A stretch of DNA of 64,000 nt from Sphaerisporangium album (GTDB lineage: Bacteria > Actinomycetota > Actinomycetes > Streptosporangiales > Streptosporangiaceae). Location of the stretch: positions 62,001 to 126,000 of the forward strand of contig NZ_QOIL01000022.1 in NCBI RefSeq assembly GCF_003323745.1, read 5' to 3'. This document shows positions 20,194 to 50,892 of this stretch, piece after piece. The notes under the pieces were generated by a model. It did no database searches and was not told where the DNA came from. It was given only the letters and a program-made list of their open reading frames with translations. A program made the position numbers and the translations under genes. Numbering within the stretch: the stretch's first letter is position 1; every line of letters begins with the position of its first letter.

Positions 20194-21444
20194 CTAGGCC
20201 GCGGCCTGGGGCGCGGGGGCGGCCGGACGGCGCAACGCCGTCGTCAGCAGCGCCGCGACGACGGACATCCCGGCCGCGACCAGGAACCCCCCGCCCGGGT
20301 GGCCGCCGGAGGCCAGCGCCCCCGCGGCCGTCGCGGCCAGGGCGCCCCCGCCCTGCCCGAGGGCGTTCAGCCACGCGAACGACTCGGTCATCGAGTCCTC
20401 CGGCGCGACCTCCTCCATCGCCGTGTACTGCGCCGTGATCATCGGCGCCAGCGCCACGCCGGCCACCGCGAACACCAGCGCCAGGCCCCACAGGTTCGAG
20501 ACGGCGACCGCCACCGCGTACCCGGCGGCCAGCACGGCGAGGAACAGGCCGAGGTGCTGGGCGCTCGTGCCGCGCAGCTTCACCGCGCCGTAGGCGAACC
20601 CGCCGAACACGCTGCCCACCGAGAACGCGGCGATCAGCAGGCCGCCGACGTCCGCGTGGCCCTGCGCGTCGGCCGTGGCCAGCAGGGCGACCTCGACGCC
20701 GGTGATGCTGCCGGTGGCCAGCAGCCCGACCGGCAGCATCCAGCGCACGGGGGCGGCGCGCAACGGGCCGCGCCAGTCACGGGCCGCGCCCTCCGTCGGC
20801 CTCAGGGCGCCGATCGCCGGCGCGCCCGCCAGGGCCACGCAGCCCACCGCCGTGAACGCCGCCGTGACCGCGATCGCGACGCTGGAGTTCGCCACCGCCA
20901 GCAGCAGCGCGACGATCGACGGGCCGACGATGAACACCGCGTCCACGATGATCGACTCCAGCGCGAAGGCCGCCGAGCGCAGACCAGGGTCGGTCAGCGT
21001 GCGGCTCCACATCGTGCGCATGATGGGGCCGATCGGCGGCAGCACCGCGCCCACCAGGAAGGACAGCACCAGCGGCACGATCGTCGGCGCGCCGCCCGAC
21101 AGCGCCGCCAGCAACCCGAGGAACACCACGGCCTGGCCGATGCCCGAGACCAGCAGCACGCCGCGGGCGCCCCGCCGGTCCACCGCGCGTCCCCGCAGCG
21201 GGCCGGACACGCCCACGCCGACCGCGTAACAGGCGGCCGCCACGCCCGCCTGGGCGTAGGAGCCGTTGTTCTGGACGAAGCCGGTGACGAGCAGCAGGCC
21301 CGCCATGCCGCTCGGCAGCCGGCCCACCAGCGCGGCGAGCGACATCGGCACGGCACCGGGGGTCGCGGCGAGCCTCAGGTAGCGCGCCATGCCGGTGACG
21401 GGGGCCTCCTCGGGCCGTGCTCCGGTTTCGGCGTCGGTGCTCAT
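20194..21444 (-). CDS. MFS transporter, likely product exporter
   Basis: 416 residues with about twelve hydrophobic segments and the MFS loop motif GRAVDRRGAR between helices 2 and 3. It starts with ATG at 21444; if the upstream LanB-like gene is corrected for a one-base frameshift, that gene ends in a TGA overlapping this ATG, so the two would be translationally coupled. As the only transporter in the leftward arm it probably exports the scaffold-derived metabolite or confers self-protection (inference from position). Confidence 0.86.
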   Translation of the reverse strand: MSTDAETGARPEEAPVTGMARYLRLAATPGAVPMSLAALVGRLPSGMAGLLLVTGFVQNNGSYAQAGVAAACYAVGVGVSGPLRGRAVDRRGARGVLLVSGIGQAVVFLGLLAALSGGAPTIVPLVLSFLVGAVLPPIGPIMRTMWSRTLTDPGLRSAAFALESIIVDAVFIVGPSIVALLLAVANSSVAIAVTAAFTAVGCVALAGAPAIGALRPTEGAARDWRGPLRAAPVRWMLPVGLLATGSITGVEVALLATADAQGHADVGGLLIAAFSVGSVFGGFAYGAVKLRGTSAQHLGLFLAVLAAGYAVAVAVSNLWGLALVFAVAGVALAPMITAQYTAMEEVAPEDSMTESFAWLNALGQGGGALAATAAGALASGGHPGGGFLVAAGMSVVAALLTTALRRPAAPAPQAAA

Positions 21445-23743
21445 GGGGCTCCTCCTGGTCGCGTGACGGACGCGCGCTCCACCACACCAGGCAACTGGTG
21501 CGCAGCTCCGCGCAGACGGGATCGCCGTCGGGTCTCCACCACAGGTCTTCGTAGTCGGGCAGCATCTCGGTGACGATCACCTCGGCCGCCGGCAGCCGCA
21601 TCAGGTCGGCGACGGCGTGCACGTCGGCGAAGTCCACGAACAGCGGCTTGGGCTCGGCCGGGTGGCGCGCGAACACCCGGCGCGGCAGGCCGGCGTCGCG
21701 CCGGAGCCGCTGGGCCTGCGTCCATGCCGCGAGTCCTCGCAGGTCGCCGGGGGTGCTCAGCCGCCAGCGGGCCCGCTGCACGACCACGCCGTCCACGGTG
21801 ATCCTCGGGGTACGGCCGCCGGTCTCGACCGTCACAGGGTTCAGCGCGGGGACCGCCAGCGCCCGGTGCACCTGCGAGGGCAGCTCGCCGCTGTACAGGC
21901 GCAGCCTGCGGCCGGCGACCGTCACGGCCGTGCCGTCGGCGTCGATGGTGACCTCGGCGATCGGCACCGTGCGGGAACGCGGCTTGAGCGAGTACCCGCC
22001 GACCTCGACGCCCACGCCCGGCATCTCCGGCAGCAGGAACTTGTTGCGCCGCCGGGACACCACGGCCGCCATGCCCGCCGGGTCGAACACCTCGACCAGA
22101 CGGCGCTCGAAGTCGGCGCGCAGCGTCTCACCGTCCGGATGCAGGCGGGTCACCGCGCCCGCGTTGTAACCGCCGTCGTCGTGCAACTCGCTCAGCACCC
22201 AGGTGGCGTCTTCCAGCGACCCCGCCGCCATCAGGTCGGGCCCCGCGATGGCCGCCAGGTGATCACCGGCCTGTGGCTCGGGGGCGTGCGCGGCCACCAG
22301 AGCGGCGATGTCGGCACTGGTCAGAGCAGCGACACCCCCGAGCGCCGCACCTGCGCCGGCCGGGGCGGCGATGCCCGCGGAGGCCGTATCGGCGGCGGTC
22401 GGGGCGGCTACCCCCTCGGAGGCCGTGCCGGCGGCGGCGCCGTGGGCGGCCATACGCCTTGCGACCAGGGCGGCGAGGTCGGCGCGCAGGGCGTCAGAGC
22501 GGCGGGTGACCAGGGGGATCTCCAGCGTTCCCGCGCGGGCCAGCGGGATCGGACGGCCGCCGGTGGCCGCGCGCAGGGCCTCCCGGGCGTCCTCGCGGGC
22601 GACCAGCGCGGCGAGGTACGACAGCGGCAGGATCGCCTCCAGCGCGGACGCCATCCCCGCGACGGCCGGGCCGCCGAGCACCGTACGGCCGCTCAGCGGG
22701 TGTGCCCGCTCCTCGTGCAGCACGTAGCGGTCCATGTAATGGCGTCCCTCACCCCGCCGCGCCTCGGCGCCGAGCCCCTTGGCGATCGCCTCGGCCCGCT
22801 CGAACGCCACCCGACGCTCCGGCGACCTCGCCGCCACGTGATCAGCCGCCGCGGCACGTCCGTCCCCAGTCGCCGCCACCCGTCCATCGTGACCCACCGC
22901 GACGTGTCCGTCTTCTTCCGGCGTGGCGAATCCCAGGGCCACCCCCGTCGAGCGCCCTCCCAGCTCCATCCCCGCCGGAGGTCCTTCCACCTCCCCCTCC
23001 GAGCGCCCTCCCACCGCCGCCGACGGGGCGCTCCCATTCGGCGCCGTGGCGGTGAGGAGGGGGGACGGTGAATCCGGCGCCGCTGTACGGTGAGCGTCCC
23101 CGGAAACGTCCCGGGAGCCGCCGTGCTCGGGAGCGGCCGTGGTCGTGACGCGGGGGAGGCCGTGTTCGAAGAAGCTTTGGCTGGACAGGAAGACGGCGTG
23201 TCGCAGGCGGGGGTCGGAGAACAGGGCCGCGAGCCTTAGGTCGGCGCGGTGCCGGGCCTGCGCGTACAGGTCGGCGACGCGCTGATCGGCGGCGGCGAGG
23301 GCGTCCAGCAACGCGTTCCAGCGCGCGGGGAAGTCGGGGAACGCGCCGATGGCCGTCCAGGCGCCGAGTTCCTTGTCGCCGAGGACGCGCCCCGCCGCGA
23401 CCGCCCGCCGGACGGCCCGCAACCCGGCGGGCCCGTCGATGGCCGTCACGGTCGGCCAGATCGAAGCCGTGAACTCGCGGCGCAGCGTCTCGTGCTCGTC
23501 GCGCAGCCTGGCCGCCTGGTCCGTGGCGTCGAGCAGCTCGGGCGCGGCGAGCCCGGCGAGACCTTCGACGCCGAAGCCGGGGGTGCGCAACAGCGTCCAG
23601 GGGATCAGGTCCCACCGCAGCCGTCCGTCGCCGAACGCGACATCACCGTCGATGCGGACCTGCGGCAACGGCCGGCCCGGGTAGGACGCCGTGGCCGCCT
23701 CGGGCACGTCGACGGTCTCCATCGGATCCATGGACGTGGTCAC
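21441..23743 (-). CDS. degenerate LanB-like protein 1 (PEARL-like), probable 3' frameshift
   Basis: A LanB-like protein recognised by EARRGEGRHYMDRYVLHEE, SRRRNKFLLPEMPG, RTPRITVDGVVVQRARW and ...VTEMLPDYEDLWW. Unlike its five paralogues it lacks the KNExxSxFGP block: after FLSSQSFFEHGLPRV there is a Gly/Ala/Pro/Ser-rich low-complexity stretch of about 110 residues, and a second Ala/Gly repeat region lies near residue 430. As written the frame has no stop until 20777, 667 bases inside the MFS gene. One extra base near 21494-21500 would change ELRTSCLVWW to ELRTQLPGVV and give a stop at 21441 overlapping the MFS ATG, matching the ELRxQL ends of paralogues. The GTG at 23743 overlaps the preceding small frame and has GGTGGAGG upstream. 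It is likely non-catalytic, perhaps a partner subunit of another copy. Confidence 0.75.
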
Positions 23744-24078
23744 CCGGCCTCCACCAGATCGAACACGTCCCTGAGACCGTGCTTCCGAACGCGCACCGGG
23801 GGCCTCGCCGTAAGAAGGCGCCGAAACCGCCGCCGCCCCTTCCCACCGACCCGGCGCCTGATACGACCCCCCACCCACCCGGAGCAGTAGATCCCCCGCC
23901 GCGAGAAGACCACCACCACACCGGAACCGACCACCCCTGCCGACTCGCCTCCGACAGTAGGCGGGGTCTCAACAGTGCCAGCTGCGCGAAAAGCAGGTCC
24001 GGAACCGACCACCCCTGCCGTCTCGCCTCCGAGGGTGGGCGGGATCGCGGGCGGCTGAAGCGAGGGGGGCCCGTTCAT
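23740..24078 (-). CDS. small repeat-bearing ORF coupled on both sides
   Basis: A 112-codon frame whose ATG overlaps the stop of LanB-like protein 2 (ATGA) and whose TGA overlaps the GTG of LanB-like protein 1 (GTGA), just as the real genes of this operon join. It has two copies of PPTxGGExAGVVGSG 26 residues apart, then a very Arg-rich middle and the tail VFDLVEAG. It has no ribosome binding site of its own and resembles no family I know. It may be a small coupled protein, a second substrate peptide, or a spacer kept open by chance in G+C-rich DNA. Confidence 0.35.
   Translation of the reverse strand: MNGPPSLQPPAIPPTLGGETAGVVGSGPAFRAAGTVETPPTVGGESAGVVGSGVVVVFSRRGIYCSGWVGGRIRRRVGGKGRRRFRRLLTARPPVRVRKHGLRDVFDLVEAG
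23921..24044. repeat. imperfect 46-bp direct repeat, 78-bp period
   Basis: The block beginning CCGGAACCGACCACCCCTGC occurs at 23921-23966 and 23999-24044 with about five mismatches. The period is a multiple of three, so the repeat is in frame within the small ORF at 23740-24078 and encodes its duplicated Gly-rich motif. Confidence 0.8.
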
Positions 24079-26465
24079 CGAGCGTCCGCGTAAGTCGGAG
24101 ACTGGACGGACGCGGCGCCGGCAGGGGTGGAGCGGGTCAGTTGCATGCGGAGTTCGCAGGTGTAGCGGCCCGAGCCGTCGCGGAGCCACAGTTCTCCGGG
24201 GCCGGGGTACATCTCCTCCACCAGCACCTCGCGGGCCTCGGGGTCGTCGCCGCGCAGGTGTCCGAGCAGTTCGGCGGCGAACGGTGAGGCCATGTCGACG
24301 AGGATGGGCTTGCGCTCGGCCTCGACCCGCGCGAACACGAACCGGGGCAGCCCGTGGCGGCGGGCGAGGCGGCGCAGGGCGAGCAGCGCCGCGGGCCCGC
24401 GCCCGCCCGAGGGCAGCGCCGCCGGGTCGAGGATCCAGCGTTCGCGCTGGTAGCAGGCGTCACCGATGGTCACACGGCCAAGGTGCCCGTACGCCCCGCG
24501 CACCGGCGCGTGCAGCACGGACGGCGGCGACAGCGCCGCGAACGGCGGATAGGTGGTGAGGTCGTTGAGCACCGGATACAGCTCGCGGACCCGTCCGGTG
24601 GAGTCCCGCAGCACCGGCCTGCCGTCCTCCAGCTCGACCGTGCAGTCGGTGGCGGACAGGTTGTCGTCGCGCCCGTCCGGGTCGGCGGCGTTGAAGACGA
24701 GCCGGGGGCCGGGGAACCGGTAGAAGCCCTTGTTGCGGCGGCTGGTGGCGAGGGCGACCAGGTCGCGGCCGTCGCGGTCCAGCCAGTCGGCGGCGGCGCG
24801 GTCGAACGCCCCGGCGTCGGGGTGGAAGGTGGCCAGCCAGCTGCTGAGGAGCAGGTGGTGGTGCACCCGGGCGAGCAGCACCCGCCACGTCCCGTCGGCG
24901 GCCTCCTCCGGCCCGGCCATGGCGAGGCAGACGTCGGGCAGCGCGTACCGGGGGCCGGGTTCGGCCTCCCCCAGCGCGTCCGCGCCGAGCCGCACGGGCT
25001 CGCCGTCCCCGGCCGGGACGAGCACGGGCCGTACCGGTGAGAACCGGCTGCCTTCCTGGTGCTCGGGACGGGCCTTCGCCGCGTACGCCGCGAAGCCGAG
25101 CGCGCCGCCCGCCTCCTCGACGATCTTCGCCATCTCCGCCCGGTGGCCCCGCTGCACCTGGTCGCCGAAGGCGGCGGACAGCTCCAGCGCCGGGGTGAGG
25201 GCCGCTTCGAGCCGGGCGGCGGCGTCGCGTCCGACCACGAGCCGGAACGGGGACGCGGCCTCCTCGAACAGCACCAGCCGGTCGGCGTACACCGCGCCCG
25301 CGCCGCGCCGGGCGGGCACGCCGGTGATCTCGGTGAACGCGGACTCCAGCTCGGCGAGCACGCCGCGCCGGGCGTCGACGTCGCCCCCGGCCGCGGCGAA
25401 CCGCCCGCACAGGGACGCCAGCCTGTCGAGGCGGCGCAGCCATCCGTCGCGGGATTCGGAGGCGGGCAGCGCGCACAGCGACGCGCGCAGCCCCGGCAGC
25501 GGGTCCACCTGCTCGCCGGGCACGTCCAGCGACCTCACCAGCGCGCCCGCGGCCAGCAGCGGGCGCAGCGCCTCGACGACGGCGCGGGCGGGGACCTTCG
25601 CGGCCTTCGCCAGCCCGGCGAACCCGGCCGGGCCGTCCTGGAGGAGGTCCACCAGCCGCAGCGCCTCGGGGCCGGGGCGCAGGACCTCGTCGCGGCCGTC
25701 CACCTCGATGCCGTCGCCGGCGCGCCGGGCCAGCAGGCTCAGGCGGACGGGGACGTGCGGGGCGAGGGCCTTGTCGCGGGCCGCCGCGCGGGCGAGCTCG
25801 GTGACGGCCCAGTGGGCGAGGAAGGCGCGGCGCACGGGGTTCTCCACCCGCTCGACGGCGAAGCCGTCGCCCTCGGTGACCTGCCCGTACCCCATGGGCC
25901 CGTACGCGCTGGCGGTCTCGTTCTTGCCGCAGAAGCGCTGGAGGTAGGTGTAGAGCTGGCGCTCCACGCGGCGGTGCTTGGCGGTGTCGGGCACCTCGCC
26001 GAGAGCCAGGTAGCCGGTCACCATGCCCTCGTACATGCCGGGATTGGAGGTGAACACCGCGTCCCTGTAGGACGGCGTGGCGGCGTGCTCGCGCAGCCGG
26101 GCGCGCAGGCCGGGCAGGTCCGCCCCGTGCGCGGCTGCCAGCCGGTCGAACGCGGCGCGCCAGCGCCTGACGGTCTCGCGGGCGCGCTGCGGCACCGGCG
26201 GCGCGCCCCCGGCGGCCAGGGTGGCGACGGCTCCGGCCGCCGCCTCCCCGAGCAGGGCTTCGAGCTCGTCCTCGACGTCCAGGACCTCCTCGCAGGCCGC
26301 GAGGACCGCCGGCGCGGCGCCGAGCGACTCCACCCAGTCGAAGGGCAGGCCCGCGTGCCTGAGCACGAAGACGGGCGCGAGCGTCCACGGGGACGCGCCG
26401 CCGGGTTGGTTCACCTGTTCGGCTCCTTCCGAGTCCCGCGCCCGGTCGGCGCCGGTGATCGTCAT
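24075..26465 (-). CDS. LanB-like protein 2 (putative peptide aminoacyl-tRNA ligase)
   Basis: 796 residues of the lantibiotic dehydratase N-terminal (glutamylation) family: WTLAPVFVLRHAGLPFDW near the start, YTYLQRFCGKNETASAYGP near 170, PARRGAGAVYADRLVLFEE near 380, SRRNKGFYRFPGPRLVF near 580, GDACYQRERWIL, and a C-terminal EEMYPGPGELWLRDGSGRYTCELR. The length fits the tRNA-dependent transfer part alone; I see no SpaB_C-type elimination domain. Proteins of this build add an amino acid from aminoacyl-tRNA to the C terminus of a scaffold peptide (AmmB, BhaB, TglB type, established knowledge). It is 18 bases downstream of the RRE/radical-SAM-like gene and ends in the ATGA overlap with the small repeat ORF. 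The amino acid used cannot be predicted. Confidence 0.85.
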   Translation of the reverse strand: MTITGADRARDSEGAEQVNQPGGASPWTLAPVFVLRHAGLPFDWVESLGAAPAVLAACEEVLDVEDELEALLGEAAAGAVATLAAGGAPPVPQRARETVRRWRAAFDRLAAAHGADLPGLRARLREHAATPSYRDAVFTSNPGMYEGMVTGYLALGEVPDTAKHRRVERQLYTYLQRFCGKNETASAYGPMGYGQVTEGDGFAVERVENPVRRAFLAHWAVTELARAAARDKALAPHVPVRLSLLARRAGDGIEVDGRDEVLRPGPEALRLVDLLQDGPAGFAGLAKAAKVPARAVVEALRPLLAAGALVRSLDVPGEQVDPLPGLRASLCALPASESRDGWLRRLDRLASLCGRFAAAGGDVDARRGVLAELESAFTEITGVPARRGAGAVYADRLVLFEEAASPFRLVVGRDAAARLEAALTPALELSAAFGDQVQRGHRAEMAKIVEEAGGALGFAAYAAKARPEHQEGSRFSPVRPVLVPAGDGEPVRLGADALGEAEPGPRYALPDVCLAMAGPEEAADGTWRVLLARVHHHLLLSSWLATFHPDAGAFDRAAADWLDRDGRDLVALATSRRNKGFYRFPGPRLVFNAADPDGRDDNLSATDCTVELEDGRPVLRDSTGRVRELYPVLNDLTTYPPFAALSPPSVLHAPVRGAYGHLGRVTIGDACYQRERWILDPAALPSGGRGPAALLALRRLARRHGLPRFVFARVEAERKPILVDMASPFAAELLGHLRGDDPEAREVLVEEMYPGPGELWLRDGSGRYTCELRMQLTRSTPAGAASVQSPTYADAR

Positions 26466-26483
26466 CGGTCGGTCATCGCCCCG

Positions 26484-32979: not shown

Positions 32980-33052
32980 TCGCACCAAGCTCCCATCGAT
33001 CCCGTCGGATTGGTTGTGTTAAGGGAATCCGCTGCCGCCCGGCTGACGGGCG

Positions 33053-33187
33053 TCAGGCGAGGGGGGCGATGCGGTTCTCGATCTCTTCGAGCAGGAACTC
33101 CATGTCGTCGAGGTCGCCGAGCTCCTCGCCGTCGTCGTACTCGTTCTCCTCCGCCGCGGGCTCCGCGACGATCTCTTCGTCGGCCAT
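33053..33187 (-). CDS. 44-residue acidic scaffold (precursor) peptide
   Basis: ATG 33187 with GAGGAG seven bases upstream, 44 codons, TGA at 33053. The product is very acidic (18 Asp/Glu), contains no Ser, Thr or Cys, and ends LLEEIENRIAPLA. A leader-like segment GDLDDMEFL precedes the end. It sits at the head of the leftward operon and is divergent from the rightward LanB-like operon. Because there is nothing to dehydrate or cyclise, it cannot be a lanthipeptide core; instead it fits a PEARL scaffold whose C-terminal Ala is extended by aminoacyl-tRNA-derived residues. The ends of ammosamide- and Bha-type scaffolds look similar from memory, which I could not check. A small CTGAC/GTCAG hairpin overlaps the stop codon and may limit read-through into the downstream genes. 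Confidence 0.85.
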   Translation of the reverse strand: MADEEIVAEPAAEENEYDDGEELGDLDDMEFLLEEIENRIAPLA

Positions 33188-36193: not shown

Positions 36194-36217
36194 GGCGCAG
36201 CACCGGAAGGAACACCC

Positions 36218-37312: not shown

Positions 37313-39834
37313 CCGCGCGGCCCGCGCGCTGGGAACTGCACCCCCAGTTCATCCTCCGCAGCACCGGATTCCCGTTCGCACTGCTGGAGCGGATCTCCTT
37401 CCCGCTGACGTCGGCCAGGATCGACGCCCTGCTCGACGCGGAGGAAGCGCTCACAACGGCCGCCGACGCCGCCATCGCCCACCTCAAGGACTCCGACCAC
37501 GTCACGGACGGCCGCCTCCGCCGCAAACTCTGGAAGATCCTCTCGCGCCACCGCCCCCTCTCCACCCCCGCCGAAGCGTCGCCCGTCTCCGTCGGCGAGC
37601 TGCCGGCGGAGACGCGGGCCCTGCTGGACCGGTACGGGCGGACGCTGGAGCGGCTGGCGGAGGCCGAGCGGGACGCCCGCGCCGAGTTCGGAGCCGAGCT
37701 CCCGGTTCGGCGCAGGGCGTTGCGCGACCTCGTGGCGGACGAGCGCTTCCAGGAGGCCGTGTGGCTGTCGAGCCCGCAGATGTACGAACGCGGGCTGCGC
37801 GGCTACCTGGCCGCGGGATTCGAAGAGACGCGCACGGGCCGCGTCCGCTCGCTGGAACGCCAACTGGCCGGCTACCTCCAACGCGTAGCCGCCAAGAACG
37901 AGACCGCCTCGTTCTTCGGCCCCATCAACTACGGCACCTTCACCCCTCGCCCCACCCCCGCCAGCTCACCCGTGCCCCCTGCGGACCTCCCCGAGCCCGA
38001 GGCGCAGCGGACAGAACCCGCTACGGCCGATGCGCCAAGGGCCGGGGTCGTGACGCGGCGGCATGCGTACGTCGCGTATTGGGTGGTGCAGGCGTTGGCG
38101 GCGAGGTTGGGGGCGGACGCGGAGGTGCGGCCGCATCTGCGGCCGCGGGTGTCCACGCTGGCCAGGCCGGCCGCCGACGGCTCGTCGGTGACGCTGGCCC
38201 GTACCCGCAAGGTCGCGCTCAGGGGCCGCGCCGCCGAGCTGCTGCCGCTCGTGGACGGCAAGCGCACCGCGACCACGCTCGCGCAGGAGGTCGGCGCGCC
38301 GGTCGGCGAGGTGGTCGCCGAGCTGGAACGGCTGGCCCGCGCCCGGATCGTGGCGTACGGCGTCGACCTGCCTGTCACCGAGCCCCGCGCGCTCGAAGCC
38401 CTGCGCGACCGCGTCGCCGAGCTTCCTGACGACTGCCCCGCGCGCGAGACGTGGCTGAGGCGGCTGGACAGGCTGCGCGACCTGCAGGAGGAGTTCGCGT
38501 CCGCGGACTTCGGCAGGCGGCGCGAGCTGCTGGATGTGCTCGAACGGGAGACCGGTGAGCTCACGGGCCTGGAGGCGCGCCGCGCGGGCGGTCAGCTGTA
38601 CGCCGACCGGCTGGTGATCACCGAGGAGTGCCTGGGCGCGGCCACCCCCCTACAGCTCGGCGAGGACGTGCTGCGCCTGCTGACCGCCGAGCTGGGCCCG
38701 GTGCTGGACCTGCTCGCCGCCGAAGCCGTCACCACACACGCCGACCTCACCGCCGCCGCGCTGAAGTCACTGAACCTGAAGGAAGGCGACCGCCTCCCCC
38801 TCCCGACCTACCTGACCCGCCCCTGGCCCGCCACCACATCGGACCGGACCGCCGTCGAGGCCCGTCCCCTCTGGCGGGCCGAGATCGAGGACCGGCTGCT
38901 CGGGGACGGCCGGCCCGTAGCGCTCGGCGCCGCCGACGTCGCCGTGGATCCCGGCACGCTGGCCGGCCGGGCGCTGATCTGCTCGCCCGACGTCATGATC
39001 GTGGCCCGCGACCTGGACGCCGTCCGCGCCGGAGACTTCACCCTCGTGCTGGCCGAGTCGCACGACACGGTGCTGCTGTGGGGCTGGGCCCTGCAGTTCC
39101 TGGACGACCCGGCCGCGGCGCAGGACGAGATCGGAGCCCTGCTGACCAGGGTCGACAGCGAACACCCCCTCGCGAACATGCTCACCTCCAAGCGGGCCAA
39201 GATCGTCCCGTTCGAGTTCCCCGGCGCGACCGTCGAGGCGTCCCAGCCGAGCCACCGCGCCGGCGGGCGCACCATCCCGGTCGGCGAGGTGGACGTCGTC
39301 GTCCGCGACGGCCGGCTGATGCTGTCGGCGCCGGGACACGACGGTTTCCTGCTATACAACGGCGAGCTGGACTCCCCCGCGCACAACGTCCTCGCCCCCC
39401 CGCGGGTACGGCCGGTGGCGTTCGGGCGGGGCGGCCCGCGCCACACCCCGCGCGTCTCGATCGGCCGTACGGTCGTCCAGCGCGAGCGGTGGGTCGTGGC
39501 ACGCGACGAGCTGGCGCCCGAGCCCGCGCGGGGAGCCGCCGGCGAGGACACGTCCTTCGCCCTCCTGGTCGCGCTGCGCAGAGCCGCGCGCCGCCACGGC
39601 CTGCCCCGCTGGGTGTTCGCGAAGATCCCGGGGGAGCGCAAGCCCGTCCTCCTGGACACCGAGGGGCTGTTCCTGGCCGAACTGCTCGCCCACCTCAGCG
39701 AGCCGGGCACGGACCTGACCCTGTCGGAGATGCTGCCCGGCCCGGGCCACCTCTGGCTCGAAGGCCCCGAGGGCGCGCACTGCACCGAACTGCGCCTGAG
39801 CGCCGTCCGCACCACCACGGACCCCGTCCCATGA
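37309..39834 (+). CDS. LanB-like protein 5 (putative peptide aminoacyl-tRNA ligase)
   Basis: 841 residues, starting ATGA on the stop of the flavoenzyme gene. Motifs: WELHPQFILRSTGFPFALLE at the N terminus, GYLQRVAAKNETASFFGPINYG near 190, EARRAGGQLYADRLVITEE near 430, KRAKIVPFEFPGATVE, HTPRVSIGRTVVQRERWVV and SEMLPGPGHLWLEGPEGAHCTELR. It is the longest copy; the extra length is mostly loop sequence, for example a Pro/Glu-rich insert after the FGP motif. Overlap with the oxidase gene suggests the two act in consecutive steps (inference). Confidence 0.86.
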   Translation: MTARPARWELHPQFILRSTGFPFALLERISFPLTSARIDALLDAEEALTTAADAAIAHLKDSDHVTDGRLRRKLWKILSRHRPLSTPAEASPVSVGELPAETRALLDRYGRTLERLAEAERDARAEFGAELPVRRRALRDLVADERFQEAVWLSSPQMYERGLRGYLAAGFEETRTGRVRSLERQLAGYLQRVAAKNETASFFGPINYGTFTPRPTPASSPVPPADLPEPEAQRTEPATADAPRAGVVTRRHAYVAYWVVQALAARLGADAEVRPHLRPRVSTLARPAADGSSVTLARTRKVALRGRAAELLPLVDGKRTATTLAQEVGAPVGEVVAELERLARARIVAYGVDLPVTEPRALEALRDRVAELPDDCPARETWLRRLDRLRDLQEEFASADFGRRRELLDVLERETGELTGLEARRAGGQLYADRLVITEECLGAATPLQLGEDVLRLLTAELGPVLDLLAAEAVTTHADLTAAALKSLNLKEGDRLPLPTYLTRPWPATTSDRTAVEARPLWRAEIEDRLLGDGRPVALGAADVAVDPGTLAGRALICSPDVMIVARDLDAVRAGDFTLVLAESHDTVLLWGWALQFLDDPAAAQDEIGALLTRVDSEHPLANMLTSKRAKIVPFEFPGATVEASQPSHRAGGRTIPVGEVDVVVRDGRLMLSAPGHDGFLLYNGELDSPAHNVLAPPRVRPVAFGRGGPRHTPRVSIGRTVVQRERWVVARDELAPEPARGAAGEDTSFALLVALRRAARRHGLPRWVFAKIPGERKPVLLDTEGLFLAELLAHLSEPGTDLTLSEMLPGPGHLWLEGPEGAHCTELRLSAVRTTTDPVP

Positions 39835-39935
39835 AACCGCCCTTCCCGCCTCACCCCGGGCCGCGGACGAGCCACCTCCCCGAGGCGGCCTCCCGCACCC
39901 GCGTACGTCTGATCGACCCGAGAGAAGACCTATGA
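39831..39935 (+). CDS. 34-codon ORF coupled between LanB-like 5 and TldD
   Basis: ATG 39831 overlaps the stop of LanB-like protein 5 and its TGA overlaps the TldD ATG, so a ribosome could pass through all three in ATGA steps. The product, beginning MKPPFPPHPGPRT and ending RLIDPREDL, is Pro- and Arg-rich with no known relatives. It is either a coupling device or a very small protein; chance openness in G+C-rich DNA is also possible. Confidence 0.3.
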   Translation: MKPPFPPHPGPRTSHLPEAASRTRVRLIDPREDL

Positions 39936-41389
39936 GCGCCCCCCCGACACACCGGGCACCACGGACGAGTCCCGCCACGGCACAAGAGATGCCCACCGTC
40001 GCTCCCCTCATCGACCCGGACGCCGCGCTGCGGACGGCGGCCGACGGAGCCGGGCCGGGGCGGCGGGCCGAGGTCTTCGCCGAGTCGTGGGTGCTGTCGC
40101 GGGCGGTCGCCGACCCGCTCGGGCTGCGGCTCGCGCAGCGCCGCCGCGAGGGCGTCGGGCTGTCGCTGGTCACGGCGGACGGCGTCCGTCACCGCCACCT
40201 GCCCTACCTGGACGCGGACCACCTGCGCACGCTGCTCGCCGGCGACGCGCCCGGCCGTCCACTCCCGCCCACGGCGCCGGCGGACCCGACGCTCTCCGGC
40301 GCGGCCCAGGGCACGCCCGGGGACGCCGGCCTCGCCACCGCCGAGGTACTGTCCCGGATGGTCGCGCTCGCCGCCGACGAGGTCGGCGCCGCCTTCCCCG
40401 GCCTCGTGACCCCCCGGGTGACCGGCGAGTTCGTCGAGCGCGCCACGCTGGTCGCCCGCGAGGACGGCCTGCTGCGCCACGGCCTGCACCGGCACCTGGA
40501 GCTGCGGATCCACGCCACGGCGCGGCGCGACGGCGCCATGGCCCGTACCCTGCGCGTGGCCGGAGCCGAGGTGGACGGCCCGCTCGGCGACGCGCCCGGT
40601 GAGGACGCCATCCGCGCCGCCGCCCGCGCCGCCGCCGAGCACGCCGTCCGTGACCTGGACGCGGTCGATCCGCCGGTCGGCGAGATCCCCGTCGTCCTCG
40701 CGGCGGGCGGCCCCGGCGCGCTGCTGCACGAGGTGTGCGGGCACGGGCTGGAGGCGGACGTCGCCCTCCAGCCCGGCGCCGCGTACGGGCGCCTGCTCGG
40801 CCACGCCTTGTCCCCCGCACGGCTCACCCTGCTGGACTCGCCTCGGGCCCCGCACGGCGCGGGCCTCTACCACTTCGACGACGAGGGCGAGCCCGCCGGG
40901 GAGGTCGCGCTGCTCGAGGACGGCGTCCTGCGCTCCTACCTGCACGACCGGCGCACCTCGGGGGCCGCGGGGCTCCCGCCGCACGGCCACGGGCGGCGGC
41001 TCGGCTACGCCTACCCGGCGCTGCCCCGCATGAGCTGCACCTACGTCGCCCCCGGCACGACGCCGCCCGAGGAGATCATCGCGGCCACGGCGTTCGGGCT
41101 GTACGTCGAGTCCATCGTGTCCGGCGAGACGGACATGAGCTCGGGCCGGTTCAGCGTGCGGATGACGTCCGGCCGGCTGATCGAGAACGGCAGGCTCACC
41201 GCGCCCGTACGCGAGGCCACCCTCGCGGGCACCGGCCTCGGAGTGCTGCGCGACATCGACCTGATCGGCGACGACCTGCGCTTCATGCCCTACGGCTACC
41301 AGTGCAACAAGCTGGGCCAGTTCCCGGTGACGGTGTCGGTCGGCCAGCCCACCCTGCGAGTAGCGCGAATGACGGTGACCGGCCCGTGA
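39932..41389 (+). CDS. tldD: TldD-type metalloprotease subunit
   Basis: 485 residues. The zinc motif HExxxH is present as LLHEVCGHGLEAD near residue 266, and the C-terminal GYQCNKLGQFPVTVSVGQPTLRVARM carries the conserved Cys and Gly-Gln-Pro block of TldD. TldD works with TldE as a heterodimeric protease that trims unfolded peptides, for example in microcin B17, PQQ-like and PEARL pathways. Its stop overlaps the TldE GTG, consistent with a 1:1 complex. A GAGAGAAG ribosome binding site precedes the ATG. The likely job is to degrade the modified scaffold peptide from its end and free the small-molecule product (inference). Confidence 0.9.
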   Translation: MSAPPTHRAPRTSPATAQEMPTVAPLIDPDAALRTAADGAGPGRRAEVFAESWVLSRAVADPLGLRLAQRRREGVGLSLVTADGVRHRHLPYLDADHLRTLLAGDAPGRPLPPTAPADPTLSGAAQGTPGDAGLATAEVLSRMVALAADEVGAAFPGLVTPRVTGEFVERATLVAREDGLLRHGLHRHLELRIHATARRDGAMARTLRVAGAEVDGPLGDAPGEDAIRAAARAAAEHAVRDLDAVDPPVGEIPVVLAAGGPGALLHEVCGHGLEADVALQPGAAYGRLLGHALSPARLTLLDSPRAPHGAGLYHFDDEGEPAGEVALLEDGVLRSYLHDRRTSGAAGLPPHGHGRRLGYAYPALPRMSCTYVAPGTTPPEEIIAATAFGLYVESIVSGETDMSSGRFSVRMTSGRLIENGRLTAPVREATLAGTGLGVLRDIDLIGDDLRFMPYGYQCNKLGQFPVTVSVGQPTLRVARMTVTGP

Positions 41390-42750
41390 ACCCCCCTGCC
41401 CTCACGACCCCGCCCGCCGCCCCGGAGTCCTCTGGCACCACGGCCTCGGTGGGGGCCGAGGAGCTGCTCCACGGCTGCCGGGCGTTGCTGGACGCCGTCG
41501 CGGCGGAGGGCGGGGACGCCGCCGACGTGCAGTGCGTGTCCACGTCCGTGCGCGCGGTCCAGGCCTTCGCCGACGGCGCCCATGCCGGACGCCAGGGCGT
41601 GACCGTCACCACCGGCCTGCGGGTTCGCGCCGGAGAGGGGGCCGCCACGCTGCTGCTGGGCGCCCCGCCCGCGTCGCCCGGAGACGTCGCGCGTCTCGCG
41701 GTGGCGCTGGCCCGCCGCTCGCACGGCGAAGGCGACCGGCCCCTGGCCCCCATCGGGGTGGGCGCGGCCGTCCATCCCGCCGTGCCGGAGCCCGAAGCTC
41801 CGTTCGAGGTCTCCCGCCGGTTCCTCGCCGAGCTGCTGACCCCGCCCGAGGCCGGGCCCGTGGCCCTCGGCGCGGAGCACGTCCACACGCGGAGCTGGAC
41901 CGTGGTCGCCGACGGCGTGGGCTCGGCCGTGGCCTACGAGCAGGCGGGGCATCACGCCTGGCACTGGCTCGAAGGTCTCGGCGGCCACATGGTCGACGGC
42001 CTGGCCGCCTCCCGGTTCGACGAGCTGCGCTGGGACGCGCTGGCGGCGCGCGCCCGCGAGTTCCGCGCGGTGCACCTGGCGGGGCCTCGCCCCCTGGACC
42101 ACGACGGGGCACTGCCGGTCCTGCTGCACCCGGACGTCGCCGCGCACCTCGTCCGCAGCCTGGGGTTCCTGCTCTGCGCGGGGAACGTGCTGTCGGGCAT
42201 GCGGCCGCTGCTGGAGCGCGTCGGACGCCGCATCGCCTCCCCCGCCGTCACGCTCGCCGACGACCCCGTCAGCCCCGTGGACGCCGAGGGCACCCCGGCG
42301 CGCCGTCAGGTGTTGCTGGAGCGCGGGGTGCTGAAAGGCTTCCTGACCGGCCGCGCGAACGCGTCCGAGCTGGGCGTGACCCCCTCGGGCGCCGCCCGCC
42401 GCTCCGCGCCCGACCAGCCCGCCGTCGAAAGCCCGTCCCACATCTCACTCGCGGCCGGTGAGGACTCGCGCGACGCGCTGCGCGCCCGGCTCGGCGACGG
42501 CATCGAGGCGGTCGGCGTCGTCCAGCCCGGCCGTATCCGGGGGCGGCGCGGCACGTTCACCACGGTCGTGCTCGGCTGGAGGGTACGGGACGGCCGCCGC
42601 ACCGAGGCCCTCGGGCCCGTGCGCGTCTCCCTCGGCGTCTTCGAACTTCTCCGCTCGATCCAGGCCACCGCCGACGACCCGGCCCACTCCTACCTCGCCG
42701 CGGGCGCCCGATCCCCCAGCATCTTGCTCAGCCACATGCGAACCGGCTGA
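41386..42750 (+). CDS. tldE: TldE/PmbA-type protease partner subunit
   Basis: 454 residues from the GTG at 41386 overlapping the TldD stop. Recognisable by DAADVQCVSTSVRAVQAFADGAHAGRQGV-type N-terminal fold, then PLLERVGRRIASPAVTLADDP, GTPARRQVLLERGVLKGFLTGRANA and FELLRSIQATADDPAH near the end. TldE lacks the HExxxH motif, as expected, and completes the TldD2-TldE2 or TldD-TldE protease. This pair is common in clusters where a peptide scaffold must be cut away from its added residues. Confidence 0.87.
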   Translation: MNPPALTTPPAAPESSGTTASVGAEELLHGCRALLDAVAAEGGDAADVQCVSTSVRAVQAFADGAHAGRQGVTVTTGLRVRAGEGAATLLLGAPPASPGDVARLAVALARRSHGEGDRPLAPIGVGAAVHPAVPEPEAPFEVSRRFLAELLTPPEAGPVALGAEHVHTRSWTVVADGVGSAVAYEQAGHHAWHWLEGLGGHMVDGLAASRFDELRWDALAARAREFRAVHLAGPRPLDHDGALPVLLHPDVAAHLVRSLGFLLCAGNVLSGMRPLLERVGRRIASPAVTLADDPVSPVDAEGTPARRQVLLERGVLKGFLTGRANASELGVTPSGAARRSAPDQPAVESPSHISLAAGEDSRDALRARLGDGIEAVGVVQPGRIRGRRGTFTTVVLGWRVRDGRRTEALGPVRVSLGVFELLRSIQATADDPAHSYLAAGARSPSILLSHMRTG

Positions 42751-43053
42751 CCGCGGAACCTCACCCGTCTGCCGGCAAAGCCGGCGGCACACCCACGACG
42801 ACGAAGCGCCCGCCCTCCTGTCAGAAAGGCCCCTTCGCATGCCATGTTCGCCCTGTGCGGCGCCCGGCCCCGGTGAGCGTACGGGAGAAGCGGATGCCCC
42901 CGGCAACTCGCCGCATCGCGTTTCCCTGGTTCGGAGGACACGGAAAGCAGCGAGTTTCTCGTGCGACCCGAGTAATCCACGGCACGACGAAGAGGCCGGA
43001 GAAATGGCGAACGCAATGGCGTCATCCACCCCGCGCGTCCGGGGAGCGCTCCG
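42751..43053. other. gap before LanB-like 6, with possible short coupled ORF
   Basis: The 303-base gap has a short palindrome (GCCGGC-AAA-GCCGGC at 42771-42785). A frame from ATG 43004 (GAGG upstream, 17 codons, MANAMASSTPRVRGALR) ends in a TGA overlapping the ATG of LanB-like protein 6; the same frame extends upstream to ATG 42839 (72 codons, Cys- and Pro-containing). I regard it as a possible leader or coupling peptide, not a proven gene. Confidence 0.35.
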
Positions 43054-45600
43054 ATGAGCTGGCTTCTGCACGACCAGCTCGTGGTACGCACGACAGGATT
43101 CCCCTACGAGGTGCTCGAGGAGATCCGGCTCCCCCGTACCGCCGCCGACATAGACGCGGTCCTGGCCGCCGAACGCGCCGCCGAGGCGCACCGGGACCGG
43201 CTGCTGCGCGAGGTGTTCCCCGAGGCCGTGCGCGCGGCCCGTGACGCCTCCGGTGACGGCGACCCGGCGACGGGACGGCTGCTGAGCAAGCAGCGCGCCG
43301 CGGTGGGCCGCCGCGTCCCGGCGCCCCGGCCCGAGGCCGCCCCCGACCCGGCCCTCGTAGGCCTTCTCCAGGATTGGAACCGGCTCCTGGCCGAGGCCGC
43401 CGAGCTGGCCGCGGGGGCGTCGGCCGAGCATCCCGCCGAGCTGGAGCTGTGCCGCAAGCGCCTCGGGGAGCGCGCGAAGGACCCCGTGCTGCGGGACGCG
43501 GTGCTCCTGCTCAGCCCCGCCTTCCACGAGGGGCTGCGCCGCTACGCCGAGAGCCCCGACGGCAGGGGTGGCCGCGAGAGCCGCCAGATCGAGCGCAGGC
43601 TCGTCACCTACCTGCAACGGCTCGCCGCCAAGAACGAGACCAACAGCCATTTCGGCCCGGTCAACTACGGCACGCTGGACCCGGACCTGCCCGCCGCCGT
43701 CCGGATCGAGCGCGATCCGTCGGTAGTCACCCGCACCGTCTTCGCCTCCGCGCGCCTGGCCGAGGCCGTGTCCGACGGCGTGCGCGCCGACCCGAGGATG
43801 CGCGCCCACCTGCGCCCCCGCCCCTCGGTCGCCCACCGGTTCACCGACGGGCGGGCGGTCAGCGCCCTTACCGGAAAGCCGGTCGCCCTGGACGCCACGG
43901 ACGCGCGGCTGATCGCCCTGTCCGAGACCGGCCTGACCGTCAGGGAGCTGGCCCGCGAACTGGCCGATACGGTCACCCCCGAGGACGACGGGCAGGCCGT
44001 CGCCGGCCGCGTGGACGCCCTGGTCCGCAGGCGCCTGCTCGCCTACGCCCCGCTCGCGGCCCCGGACACCGCCCGGCCGCTGGACGCCGTCGCCGCCTGG
44101 CTGGACGCGCTGCCGGACCCCGACGACGCCGTCCGCGTGTGGCGGGCGACGACCGCCGAGCTCACGGCGCTGGTCGAGGCGTGCGGCGCCGGCTCGCGCG
44201 CGGACGGGGTGACGGCGACGAAGCTGCTGGAGGAGCGCTACGAGGCGCTCACCGGCGAGGCCGCGCGGCGCGGCGCGGGCCGCATGTACGTGGACCGCAC
44301 GCTCGTCTTCGAGGAGTGCCGCGGCGACCTGACCCGGTTCGAGCTGGGCGGACCCGTGGCCGCCCGGGTGGGCGACGGCCTCGTCCCCGTCCTCGACCTG
44401 TGGCGCACGGCCGCGCTGCTGCGCCGCCACGACCAGCAGGTACGCGCCCGGACCGTCCTCGACGCCGTCGCCGCGGAGGCGTCGGTCCCGCTGCTCACCT
44501 ACCTGCGCGCGTCGGCGGAGCACCGGCCCGCCGCCCAGACGTCCGCGGACGAGGGCACGGCGCTGGCCCGCTTCGAGGGCCTGGTCCGCGGGCTGCTTGA
44601 GGGCCGCGAGAGCGAGGCCCGGGTGGACCTGCGCGGCGAGGAGGTCGCCGCCCTGGCCGCCCGCGCGCGTACGGAGTTCGTGGACGTCGCCGTGCCCGGC
44701 GCCGACTCCCCCGCGTTCACCTCCGTCGACCTGCTCATCGCGGCACGCGACGAGCACGCGCCGGCCGAGGGCGACTTCCAGATCGTCGTCGGCGAGGGGC
44801 ACGCCCCGGCGCTGCTGTCGGTGTTCCCGACCGACCACTTCCGCCGCGAGGAGGGCAGGCCTGACCGCATCGCCGCGCTGATGGACAACGTGTTCGCCGA
44901 CGCGGGCGTACGCGTGGCCCAGGTGGTGATCGGGCGCGGTACGAAGATCTTCCCGTACCGGGTGGCGGACATCCTGGTCGAGCTGCGCCCGCACCTGCCC
45001 CGGGCGGGCGAGGCGGTCCCGGCCGCCGCGCTCCGCGTGCTCCGCGACGGCGCGGGGGTGGCGCTGCACGACGACGACGGCCCGCTGCTGCTGCACCCGC
45101 AGCTCAAGCGCGCCCCCGGGTTCGACCCGCTGGCCGCGTTCACGCTGCCCGCCGTCGAGGACCACCCGTTCCTGCTGCCGGGCCACACGCCCCGGCTTAC
45201 CGTGGACGGCGTCGTTTACCAGCGGGAACGCTGGCAGGAGCCGGGCCTGCCGTGGGACGCGTCGCTCAGCGGCTGGCCCTTGCTGAGGGCGGCACGCGAG
45301 TGGCGGCACCGCGCCGGGATGCCCGAGCAGGTCTACTACCGGACTCCCGAGGAGCCCAAGCCGCTGCTTCTGGACTTCACCAGCCGCCATCTGATCGAGG
45401 TGTTCCACCGCCACGTCGCCCGCAGCACGGGCCCCGTGACGGTCACCGAAATGCTCCCGTCCCCCGACGGCATCTGGCTCCCGGCCCCCGACGGCCGCCA
45501 CACCTTCGAACTCCGCGCCTTCGCCATCCACCCGGGCGAGAAGGCGACGACGCCCTCCGGCCCCGGCTGGCGGATCGACCGCGGCCACGCCCCTCGCTGA
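43054..45600 (+). CDS. LanB-like protein 6 (putative peptide aminoacyl-tRNA ligase)
   Basis: 848 residues. Motifs: WLLHDQLVVRTTGFPYEVLE at the N terminus, TYLQRLAAKNETNSHFGPVNYG near 195, AARRGAGRMYVDRTLVFEE near 405, GRGTKIFPYRVADILVE, HTPRLTVDGVVYQRERWQE and TEMLPSPDGIWLPAPDGRHTFELR near the end, followed by a 25-residue tail absent from the others. The central FFGP is HFGP here. It is the last gene of the rightward operon. Like the other copies it lacks a visible elimination domain, so tRNA-dependent amino acid addition rather than dehydration is favoured. Confidence 0.85.
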   Translation: MSWLLHDQLVVRTTGFPYEVLEEIRLPRTAADIDAVLAAERAAEAHRDRLLREVFPEAVRAARDASGDGDPATGRLLSKQRAAVGRRVPAPRPEAAPDPALVGLLQDWNRLLAEAAELAAGASAEHPAELELCRKRLGERAKDPVLRDAVLLLSPAFHEGLRRYAESPDGRGGRESRQIERRLVTYLQRLAAKNETNSHFGPVNYGTLDPDLPAAVRIERDPSVVTRTVFASARLAEAVSDGVRADPRMRAHLRPRPSVAHRFTDGRAVSALTGKPVALDATDARLIALSETGLTVRELARELADTVTPEDDGQAVAGRVDALVRRRLLAYAPLAAPDTARPLDAVAAWLDALPDPDDAVRVWRATTAELTALVEACGAGSRADGVTATKLLEERYEALTGEAARRGAGRMYVDRTLVFEECRGDLTRFELGGPVAARVGDGLVPVLDLWRTAALLRRHDQQVRARTVLDAVAAEASVPLLTYLRASAEHRPAAQTSADEGTALARFEGLVRGLLEGRESEARVDLRGEEVAALAARARTEFVDVAVPGADSPAFTSVDLLIAARDEHAPAEGDFQIVVGEGHAPALLSVFPTDHFRREEGRPDRIAALMDNVFADAGVRVAQVVIGRGTKIFPYRVADILVELRPHLPRAGEAVPAAALRVLRDGAGVALHDDDGPLLLHPQLKRAPGFDPLAAFTLPAVEDHPFLLPGHTPRLTVDGVVYQRERWQEPGLPWDASLSGWPLLRAAREWRHRAGMPEQVYYRTPEEPKPLLLDFTSRHLIEVFHRHVARSTGPVTVTEMLPSPDGIWLPAPDGRHTFELRAFAIHPGEKATTPSGPGWRIDRGHAPR

Positions 45601-50597: not shown

Positions 50598-50892
50598 CAG
50601 GGCCTCCCTCGAAGCCGCCGCCGCGCGGGTGCGGTTCCCGGCGGCCACGCCCGTCCGCCCGGCGGAGTGTGCTCCCCAGGCGCGTGACCGTCTTTCCGGT
50701 GGGTCTTGACAAGAGGTTGACAGGTATATTCACAGTGGATTGTCCGAGACTGTGAAATGGCCCCCGCACCCGCCCCCCACGACGCCCGCCGAAAGATCAC
50801 CGTACACCAGCATAAACGCGGGGATTCCCCGGCGCATTCCATATTCCTGGGTTCCTGGGTTCCCGGCTCCGGCCCGCCCCCGGACATGACGA

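What the first reader, a model, noticed from the sequence alone, without database searches (positions are those of the whole stretch)
20194..45600. Scaffold-peptide (PEARL-like) pathway with six LanB paralogues around one 44-residue peptide
Seen: six LanB-type proteins of about 770-850 residues in two divergent operons, an acidic peptide with no Ser/Thr/Cys, a glycine-oxidase-like flavoenzyme, TldD/TldE and an exporter. Known: PEARLs (AmmB, BhaB, TglB) add amino acids from aminoacyl-tRNA to a scaffold peptide, after which proteases release the product. Inferred: this is a pathway of that kind with five intact ligases and one degenerate one, hence possibly up to five additions, which I have not seen described in this arrangement.
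Basis: partly seen in the sequence, partly recalled or inferred. Interest (0 to 1): 0.95.

Follow-up and report, generated by a model that had tools for sequence, protein, structure and literature searches.

The report
Ammosamide-type scaffold-peptide pathway, shortened scaffold
These bacterial genes form a relative of the pathway that builds ammosamide-like pigments on the end of a small carrier peptide using amino acids borrowed from tRNAs, and here the carrier is made two residues too short, which suggests that two of the enzymes first rebuild its tip.

Summary
In detail: six LanB-type proteins, one 44-residue acidic peptide without Ser/Thr/Cys, a glycine-oxidase-like flavoenzyme, TldD/TldE and an MFS exporter lie in two divergent operons. 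The peptide passes NCBI's ammosamide/lymphostin leader model (43.9 bits, cut-off 30). This is a pyrroloiminoquinone-type pearlin pathway. Many PEARLs in one cluster is not new (amm has 4, bha 7).

Five ligases keep the PEARL catalytic residues. The sixth, orthologous to Amm18 (AmmB4, the Arg ligase, by gene order), has lost its tRNA-end-binding helix and its own stop; across six relatives it is full-length in two, damaged in one (the window), absent in three.

New: in all six members of this clade the scaffold stops at ...NRIAPLA, whereas 20 of 20 other precursors read ...IAPLALA. In published tests BhaC1 needed that Leu-Ala before Trp, and in bha the missing Ala is added by a PEARL. Relative to amm without the Arg ligase, this clade has two extra PEARLs for two missing residues. 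I propose that they rebuild Leu-Ala before Trp is added. This is untested; extra PEARLs also occur in two clusters with complete scaffolds.

The parts
20194..21444 (-). MFS exporter
   Evidence: PF07690 71.7 bits; conserved next to the cluster in G216, G219, G221, Streptomyces huiliensis and G730
21445..23731 (-). LanB6: degenerate PEARL, orthologue of Amm18 (AmmB4 by gene order); start uncertain, no stop of its own
   Evidence: groups with Amm18 orthologues, 100/100; tRNA-end helix with the Arg208 equivalent missing; central part replaced by low-complexity sequence compared with G216; frame runs into the exporter gene; full-length in G216 and S. huiliensis, absent in G219, G221, G730
24075..26465 (-). 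LanB5: PEARL, orthologue of Amm11 (AmmB3 by gene order; predicted Gly donor to the indole ring)
   Evidence: PF04738 63.9 bits; clade with Amm11 orthologues 100/100; catalytic residues kept, with Arg in place of the Glu575 equivalent in all nine orthologues shown
26484..28157 (-). Amm10-like protein: weak radical-SAM-like similarity without the Cys motif
   Evidence: TIGR04479 at E 0.064 only; two Cys, no CxxxCxxC; phmmer 45 bits to the S. uncialis gene that lies before the Amm11-type ligase; Amm10 described in these terms in PMC12715798
28685..31090 (-). LanB4: PEARL, orthologue of Amm8 (AmmB1 by gene order; predicted Leu-derived amino donor)
   Evidence: PF04738 68.3 bits; clade with Amm8 orthologues 100/100; catalytic residues kept, Phe at the Tyr205 equivalent
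31087..32979 (-). TPR protein, homologue of the FMN-dependent indole trihydroxylases AmmC1/BhaC1
   Evidence: 35-39% identity to the neighbour of the precursor gene in amm/lym-type clusters incl. the ammosester producer S. uncialis; Lys360, Asn440, Lys614 match the Lys/Asn/Lys proposed for substrate binding in AmmC1
33053..33187 (-). scaffold (precursor) peptide, 44 aa, ending EEIENRIAPLA then TGA
   Evidence: NF033737 43.9 bits, cut-off 30; TGA straight after APLA in all six relatives
33734..36193 (+). LanB1: PEARL without orthologue in amm; candidate scaffold-rebuilding ligase
   Evidence: PF04738 78 bits (shorter start used); catalytic residues kept; own clade; ATG at 33734
36218..37312 (+). 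glycine-oxidase-like FAD enzyme (BhaG/Amm14-like)
   Evidence: DAO PF01266 203 bits; best NCBIfam ThiO 172 bits, below its cut-off 250.8; homologue in the related clusters
37309..39834 (+). LanB2: PEARL; one of two candidates for the Trp-adding ligase (AmmB2 = Amm9)
   Evidence: PF04738 56.1 bits; clade with Amm9 orthologues and LanB3, 95/96; shares the stretch HD(T/A)xLxxxWALQF with Amm9 orthologues
39932..41389 (+). TldD-like metalloprotease subunit
   Evidence: PF19289 184 bits; HEVCGH motif at residue 266 of the frame scanned
41449..42750 (+). TldE-like partner subunit
   Evidence: PF19289 131 bits; no HExxxH
43054..45600 (+). LanB3: PEARL in the Amm9 superclade; candidate Trp-adding or scaffold-rebuilding ligase
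   Evidence: no Pfam hit but 33-34% identity to LanB2 over 876 alignment columns, E 4e-77; catalytic residues kept; clade position

Best explanation
This is a pearlin (scaffold-peptide) gene cluster of the pyrroloiminoquinone kind, related to the amm and lym clusters. Shown by sequence: a scaffold peptide of the Amm/Lym family; five LanB-type ligases with the PEARL catalytic residues and one decayed ligase; homologues of the TPR indole trihydroxylase, the glycine oxidase, TldD/TldE, Amm10 and an exporter. Inferred mechanism: ligases extend the scaffold's C-terminus from aminoacyl-tRNAs; Trp is added (LanB2 or LanB3, relatives of AmmB2); the TPR protein oxidises the terminal indole to a hydroxyquinone; LanB5 condenses Gly onto the ring and the glycine oxidase leaves the amine; LanB4 brings a second amine, from Leu in amm; TldD/E cuts the modified end off, the scaffold is reused and the exporter removes the product. 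The expected product is an aminoquinone or pyrroloiminoquinone amino acid without chlorine, methyl or amide decoration, since no halogenase, methyltransferase or amide synthetase family was hit in the window genes scanned. Proposed special step (less certain, see the section on the most novel reading): because the translated scaffold lacks the last Leu-Ala, two ligases add these first.
For: Leader model NF033737 over cut-off. PF04738 without PF14028 on the contig. Tree: LanB4 with Amm8, LanB5 with Amm11, LanB6 with Amm18, each 100/100; LanB2 and LanB3 with Amm9 95/96. Amm9 = AmmB2 is in print (PMC8210675). ATP- and tRNA-site residues kept in LanB1-5, several of them tested by mutation in TglB or BhaB7 (PMC11962472). 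TPR homologue with the Lys/Asn/Lys set. Same gene order (exporter, [LanB6], LanB5, Amm10-like, LanB4, TPR, peptide, then divergent LanB1, glycine oxidase, LanB2, TldD, TldE, LanB3) in six species, the most distant (G730) at 37-51% protein identity; only exceptions seen: LanB6 missing in three, the peptide on the LanB1 strand and one extra flavoprotein gene in S. huiliensis.
Against: No activity is known for any of these proteins. Pfam on 38 of the 40 genes called in the window (plus LanB6 and one antisense frame) hit no M20 peptidase (Amm19), no FMN quinone-reductase family (Amm17) and no tryptophan halogenase; I had no Amm17 or Amm19 sequence to search with, and the rest of the genome was not searched for them. 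The Arg ligase that amm needs for TldD/E release is decayed here. Except for Amm9 = AmmB2, the equations Amm8 = AmmB1, Amm11 = AmmB3 and Amm18 = AmmB4 rest on gene order, not on a printed table that I saw. BhaB sequences could not be reached for the tree.
Confidence: 0.87

Rival explanations
1. Trp is added straight onto ...APLA, the TPR enzyme of this clade has adapted to a shorter reach, and the two extra ligases do other jobs: a new release tag in place of the decaying Arg ligase, or another amino donor or cap.
For: The Arg ligase orthologue is full-length in only two of six species, so TldD/E release may need another tag. LanB1 groups (88/92) with extra ligases of S. xanthophaeus and Actinoplanes, whose scaffolds are complete LALA, so LanB1-type ligases need not rebuild scaffolds. 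The TPR protein is only 35-39% identical to the amm-type enzymes.
Against: BhaC1 accepted none of the four variants with Ala19, Leu18/Ala19 or more deleted and none of four Leu18 variants; of the replacements of the Ala, only Ser and Gly were partly accepted (PMC9850906). The truncation is exactly these two residues in six of six species.
Confidence: 0.45
2. The LanB proteins are glutamylating dehydratases of a class I lanthipeptide or thiopeptide pathway.
For: PF04738 homology; the best-scoring solved structures by sequence are a lantibiotic dehydratase domain protein (6ec7/6ec8, TbtB according to PMC11117183) and a goadsporin protein (9jhq).
Against: No PF14028 on the contig, no Ser/Thr/Cys in the peptide, no LanC-like family among the window genes scanned; the Asp558 and Arg815 equivalents, which PMC11117183 says are Tyr and Leu in split LanBs, are Asp and Arg in all six.
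Confidence: 0.02
3. The scaffold pathway is real but the product is not a quinone: the TPR protein and the flavoenzyme do other chemistry on a PEARL-added residue.
For: TPR identity to AmmC1-type proteins is 35-39%; the glycine oxidase scores below the ThiO model's own cut-off; no further gene lies between exporter and LanB3 in the window or G219 that could be a quinone reductase; S. huiliensis carries an extra PNPOx-like flavoprotein there.
Against: TPR gene adjacent to the scaffold gene as in amm, with the substrate-binding Lys/Asn/Lys kept; Amm8-, Amm9- and Amm11-type ligases and the Amm10-like gene kept together.
Confidence: 0.1
4. The cluster makes a peripheral group for the enediyne encoded around it.
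For: In the window, G216 and G221 it lies between enediyne core genes and, on its other side, an enediyne chromoprotein gene (NF040680 107.5 bits, cut-off 86, in the window).
Against: In G219 the enediyne marker DUF1702 is over 2 Mb away from the pearlin cluster; S. huiliensis and G730 have the same pearlin cluster and no DUF1702 match at E 1e-10.
Confidence: 0.04

Closest known systems
Ammosamide (amm) and ammosester (ame) clusters, Streptomyces
   Same: Scaffold family, TPR trihydroxylase, Amm8/Amm9/Amm11/Amm18-type ligases, Amm10, glycine oxidase, TldD/E (compared through S. uncialis, and the papers)
   Different: Scaffold two residues shorter and without C-terminal extension; two ligases more; the Amm18-type ligase decayed or absent; two divergent operons; no halogenase, methyltransferase, amide synthetase or M20 dipeptidase family hit in the window
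Lymphostin (lym) clusters, Salinispora
   Same: Scaffold family, TPR protein, four orthologous ligases
   Different: Lym scaffold is LALA plus a tail, four ligases; no NRPS module hit in this window (the PKS here is the enediyne type)
bha cluster, Bacillus (Alkalihalobacillus) halodurans C-125
   Same: Many ligases (seven); a scaffold whose tip is completed by a PEARL (Ala by BhaB1) before Trp is added
   Different: One missing residue (Ala) in bha, two (Leu-Ala) here; direct sequence comparison was not possible
S. xanthophaeus NRRL B-5414 and Actinoplanes siamensis clusters (this work)
   Same: Amm8/9/11/18-type ligases plus extra ones (seven in all)
   Different: Scaffold complete (...IAPLALA); different extra ligases

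Membership tests
Pyrroloiminoquinone-type pearlin pathway | scaffold peptide of the Amm/Lym family | tested here: met
   NF033737 43.9 bits, cut-off 30
Pyrroloiminoquinone-type pearlin pathway | PEARL orthologous to the Trp-adding AmmB2 (Amm9) | tested here: inconclusive
   LanB2 and LanB3 join the Amm9 clade (95/96), but which one is the orthologue is unresolved: LanB3 77/70; LanB2 not rejected, AU p 0.325
Pyrroloiminoquinone-type pearlin pathway | TPR-domain FMN indole trihydroxylase (BhaC1/AmmC1) | tested here: met
   homology, gene position and Lys/Asn/Lys kept; activity and FMN not tested
Pyrroloiminoquinone-type pearlin pathway | glycine oxidase (BhaG/Amm14) | tested here: met
   DAO 203 bits, homologue in related clusters; below the ThiO equivalog cut-off
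Pyrroloiminoquinone-type pearlin pathway | TldD/E heterodimer | tested here: met
   PF19289 in both, HExxxH in TldD only
Pyrroloiminoquinone-type pearlin pathway | scaffold ending or passing through PLALA before Trp | tested here: not met
   encoded peptide stops at APLA in six of six; 20 of 20 others read APLALA. The bha scaffold lacks the last Ala and is completed by a PEARL, so this does not exclude membership
Pyrroloiminoquinone-type pearlin pathway | pyrroloiminoquinone product | not testable with these tools
   needs metabolite or peptide mass data
PEARL (LanB1-5) | Lant_dehydr_N domain without SpaB_C; Asp558, Glu813, Arg815, Arg208 equivalents (BhaB7 numbering) | tested here: met
   LanB3 by BLAST only
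PEARL (LanB6) | tRNA-end binding helix with the Arg208 equivalent | tested here: not met
   gap at these columns in the window copy; kept in the G216 and S. huiliensis copies
Class I lanthipeptide | elimination domain and Ser/Thr/Cys-rich precursor | tested here: not met

The most novel reading that the evidence does not exclude
The ribosome makes the scaffold two residues short, and two PEARLs (LanB1 and one of LanB2/LanB3) first rebuild the Leu-Ala tip that the TPR trihydroxylase requires; the encoded tip ...APLA would then be the point to which TldD/E returns the scaffold after each round, so that the released unit could be Leu-Ala-(modified Trp). A scaffold peptide would thus have two consecutive residues of its own recognition sequence written by tRNA ligases instead of by its gene.
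Probability: 0.38. Interest if true: 0.75.

Novelty: new variant of a known kind. Interest (0 to 1): 0.55.

Why it matters
PEARL specificity could not be predicted from sequence as of the papers seen, and why related clusters carry between two and seven ligases is not explained there. This clade gives a simple, directly testable rule: compare the encoded scaffold tip with the tip that the trihydroxylase needs, and the difference names amino acids that some of the ligases should add. If true, Leu- and Ala-adding chain-end PEARLs would be in hand, useful for C-terminal labelling, and part of a genetic message would be shown to be replaced by template-free ligation.

Tried and rejected
Nearest relative by single protein in genome contigs (LanB4) found nothing; a profile of the TPR protein gave 22 loci. 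PDB by LanB4 alone found nothing; by profile, 6ec7/6ec8 and a goadsporin protein 9jhq (plus weak unrelated hits), and for the TPR protein only repeat-type matches. Plasmids: one distant TPR homologue in a Kitasatospora record, not followed. A draw of 394 genomes of the class gave no leader hit beyond the window's own genome. Assigning Arg specificity to LanB6 through AmmB4 Glu581 was tried and dropped, because numbering could not be fixed on the S. uncialis orthologue. Whether LanB2 or LanB3 is the Trp ligase was not resolved; the third test, LanB1 with Amm9, did not finish and was not repeated. In one search my column for the Arg715 equivalent was set one residue off; I use the invariant Arg669 of alignment A2 instead. 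A precursor for the Citreicoccus (L059) and MAG (L051) loci was not found with the motifs tried. A lanthipeptide reading was rejected. Small frames in the intergenic gaps gave no convincing second precursor by eye. One Pfam query was the wrong strand of a gene already scanned.
Full report
What is there. Two divergent operons meet at about 33.2-33.7 kb. Leftwards (minus strand): the 44-residue peptide (33053-33187), a TPR protein (31087-32979), LanB4 (28685-31090), an Amm10-like protein (26484-28157), LanB5 (24075-26465), LanB6 (21445 to about 23731) and an MFS exporter (20194-21444). Rightwards: LanB1 (33734-36193), a glycine-oxidase-like FAD enzyme (36218-37312), LanB2 (37309-39834), TldD (39932-41389), TldE (41449-42750) and LanB3 (43054-45600). 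The names LanB1-6 are mine.

Family. The peptide matches NCBIfam NF033737, 'ammosamide/lymphostin RiPP family protein', at 43.9 bits against a curated cut-off of 30. That model, run over 341 genomes of the window's family, rang in 11, four of them in the window's own genus, itself included; in a draw of 394 genomes of the class, only in the window's own genome; and in 2 of 101 genomes of the genus of Streptomyces huiliensis, itself included. LanB1, 2, 4 and 5 pass Pfam PF04738; LanB3 and LanB6 do not hit Pfam but are homologous to the rest by BLAST. The elimination domain PF14028 has eight matches in the genome, none on this contig.

The missed diagnostic gene. BhaC1/AmmC1, which hydroxylates the C-terminal Trp three times, is described as a TPR-domain protein that bioinformatics did not predict to be a flavoprotein (PMC11117183, sections 3 and 4 read; PMC9850906, sections 2, 8 and 19 read). 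The TPR protein here is 35-39% identical to the protein encoded next to the scaffold gene in amm/lym-type clusters, including the ammosester producer S. uncialis DCA2648 and five Salinispora records. The AmmC1 residues proposed to hold the substrate (Lys350, Asn432, Lys602) correspond to Lys360, Asn440 and Lys614 here; in the S. uncialis protein, counted from the Met that I take as its start, the same three are 349, 431 and 599. The protein at 26484-28157 fits the published description of Amm10: partial radical-SAM-like similarity without the cysteine motif (PMC12715798, sections 5, 6 and 13 read). The C-terminal recognition-element part of that description I did not test.

Ligases. I collected 72 PEARL-like proteins from 17 regions and built trees (72 rows; 57 rows with bootstraps, leaving out the rows of five genomes close to others that were kept). 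LanB4 joins the Amm8 orthologues, LanB5 the Amm11 orthologues and LanB6 the Amm18 orthologues, each with 100/100 support; LanB2 and LanB3 join the Amm9 orthologues as a group (95/96). LanB1 stands apart, loosely (88/92) with extra ligases of S. xanthophaeus and Actinoplanes. The ligases are named Amm8, 9, 11 and 18 here from their order after the scaffold gene in S. uncialis. PMC8210675 (passages) names Amm8, 9, 11 and 18 as LanB-like proteins and states that Amm9 is AmmB2, the Trp ligase. I infer AmmB1 = Amm8 (Leu), AmmB3 = Amm11 (Gly) and AmmB4 = Amm18 (Arg) from the order. Which of LanB2 and LanB3 is the Trp ligase is not resolved: LanB3 with Amm9 77/70; LanB2 with Amm9 not rejected, AU p 0.325. 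LanB2 shares the stretch HD(T/A)xLxxxWALQF with Amm9 orthologues.

Active sites. Residues shown by others to matter in TglB or BhaB7 (Asp558, Glu813, Arg815 for ATP; Arg208 and Tyr205 for the tRNA end; PMC11962472, section 4, parts 1 and 2 of 3 read) are present in LanB1-5, except that the Tyr205 equivalent is Phe in LanB4; Arg429 was not mapped. In the window's LanB6 the ATP residues remain, but the helix with the Arg208 equivalent and most of the central domain are replaced by low-complexity sequence, and the frame lacks its own stop. The orthologue is full-length in G216 and S. huiliensis, and absent in G219, G221 and G730. The Arg ligase, which in amm makes the substrate fit for TldD/E (PMC12715798), therefore looks dispensable in this clade, if the equation with AmmB4 is right.

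Conservation. The gene order is the same in six species: window, G216, G219, G221, S. huiliensis and G730. Exceptions seen: LanB6 as above; in S. huiliensis the peptide lies on the LanB1 strand and an extra PNPOx-like flavoprotein gene sits between the glycine oxidase and LanB2. G730 is far (37-51% protein identity) and has just the five ligases.

The shortened scaffold. The six members encode a scaffold ending EIENRIAPLA followed at once by TGA. Each of the 20 other precursors recovered reads ...IAPLALA, with or without a tail (counted after removing the same genome seen twice); for two further loci (L051, L059) no precursor was found. The motifs used to pick precursors did not ask for the last Leu-Ala. 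The six are one clade of the TPR tree with 100/100 support (the program warns that G730 is a long branch), so this counts as one inherited change, not six. It was not selected for: S. huiliensis came through the TPR profile and G730 through the leader model. For BhaC1, deleting Ala19, Leu18/Ala19 or more, or changing Leu18, gave no product, and the Ala missing from BhaA is put on by the PEARL BhaB1 (PMC9850906). The window's clade lacks both residues. Its five conserved ligases are the Amm8, Amm9 and Amm11 types plus two more. I therefore propose that these two add Leu and Ala.

Limits of that proposal. S. xanthophaeus and Actinoplanes carry seven ligases with a complete LALA scaffold, so extra ligases do not by themselves mean scaffold repair, and LanB1 is loosely their relative. 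The loss of the Arg ligase leaves a vacancy that one of the extra ligases could fill. The TPR enzyme of the clade may have adapted. BhaB1 itself was out of reach. I give the proposal 0.38.

What is in print. Searches for pearlin/PEARL papers and for the scaffold strings (12 of 14 papers listed, none with 'NRIAPLA') showed no report of an APLA-ended scaffold in the held open-access library; supplements and subscription papers were not seen, and only the papers named here were opened. Clusters with four (amm) and seven (bha, by my count) PEARLs are published, so the ligase number as such is not new. Other papers used: PMC12550832 (abstract and part of one section), PMC12945691, PMC9505594 and PMC9303977 (passages).

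Neighbourhood. To the left lie enediyne-type genes (a KS-AT-KR-DH synthase, two DUF1702 proteins, an UnbV-like protein), to the right an enediyne chromoprotein gene (NF040680 107.5 bits, cut-off 86). That these are enediyne core genes is my knowledge of the families. G216 and G221 share the arrangement, as far as their fetched stretches reach; in G219 the DUF1702 pair is elsewhere on the chromosome, and S. huiliensis and G730 have no match. The pearlin cluster is thus a separate unit that has come to sit inside an enediyne locus in three species.

Noticed in passing
window 683-13921 (-) and 51032-51445 (-): Enediyne-type PKS genes on one side and an enediyne chromoprotein (neocarzinostatin family) gene on the other side of the pearlin cluster; same layout in G216 and G221, but separate in G219 and no DUF1702 match in S. 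huiliensis and G730.
   Followed up: partly
L043 / L066-L067 (S. xanthophaeus NRRL B-5414) and L053 / L070-L071 (Actinoplanes siamensis): Clusters with seven PEARLs each and a scaffold that ends exactly at LALA; three pairs of extra ligases orthologous between the two.
   Followed up: partly
   Followed up: no
L059, L064-L065 (Citreicoccus inhibens, a myxobacterium by my knowledge): TPR trihydroxylase homologue, glycine oxidase, Amm10-like protein and two PEARLs; branches next to the window's clade in the TPR tree; no scaffold gene recognised.
   Followed up: partly
window 24075-26465 and its orthologues: All nine Amm11-type ligases shown have Arg in place of the Mg-binding Glu575 equivalent: a possible mark of ligases that act on the indole ring.
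   Followed up: no
L060-L061, S. huiliensis: The scaffold gene lies on the LanB1 strand, opposite to its position in the other five members of the clade.
   Followed up: no
window 50055-50648 (-): KptA/Tpt1 RNA 2'-phosphotransferase gene near the cluster, conserved in G216 and G221; no link shown.
   Followed up: no
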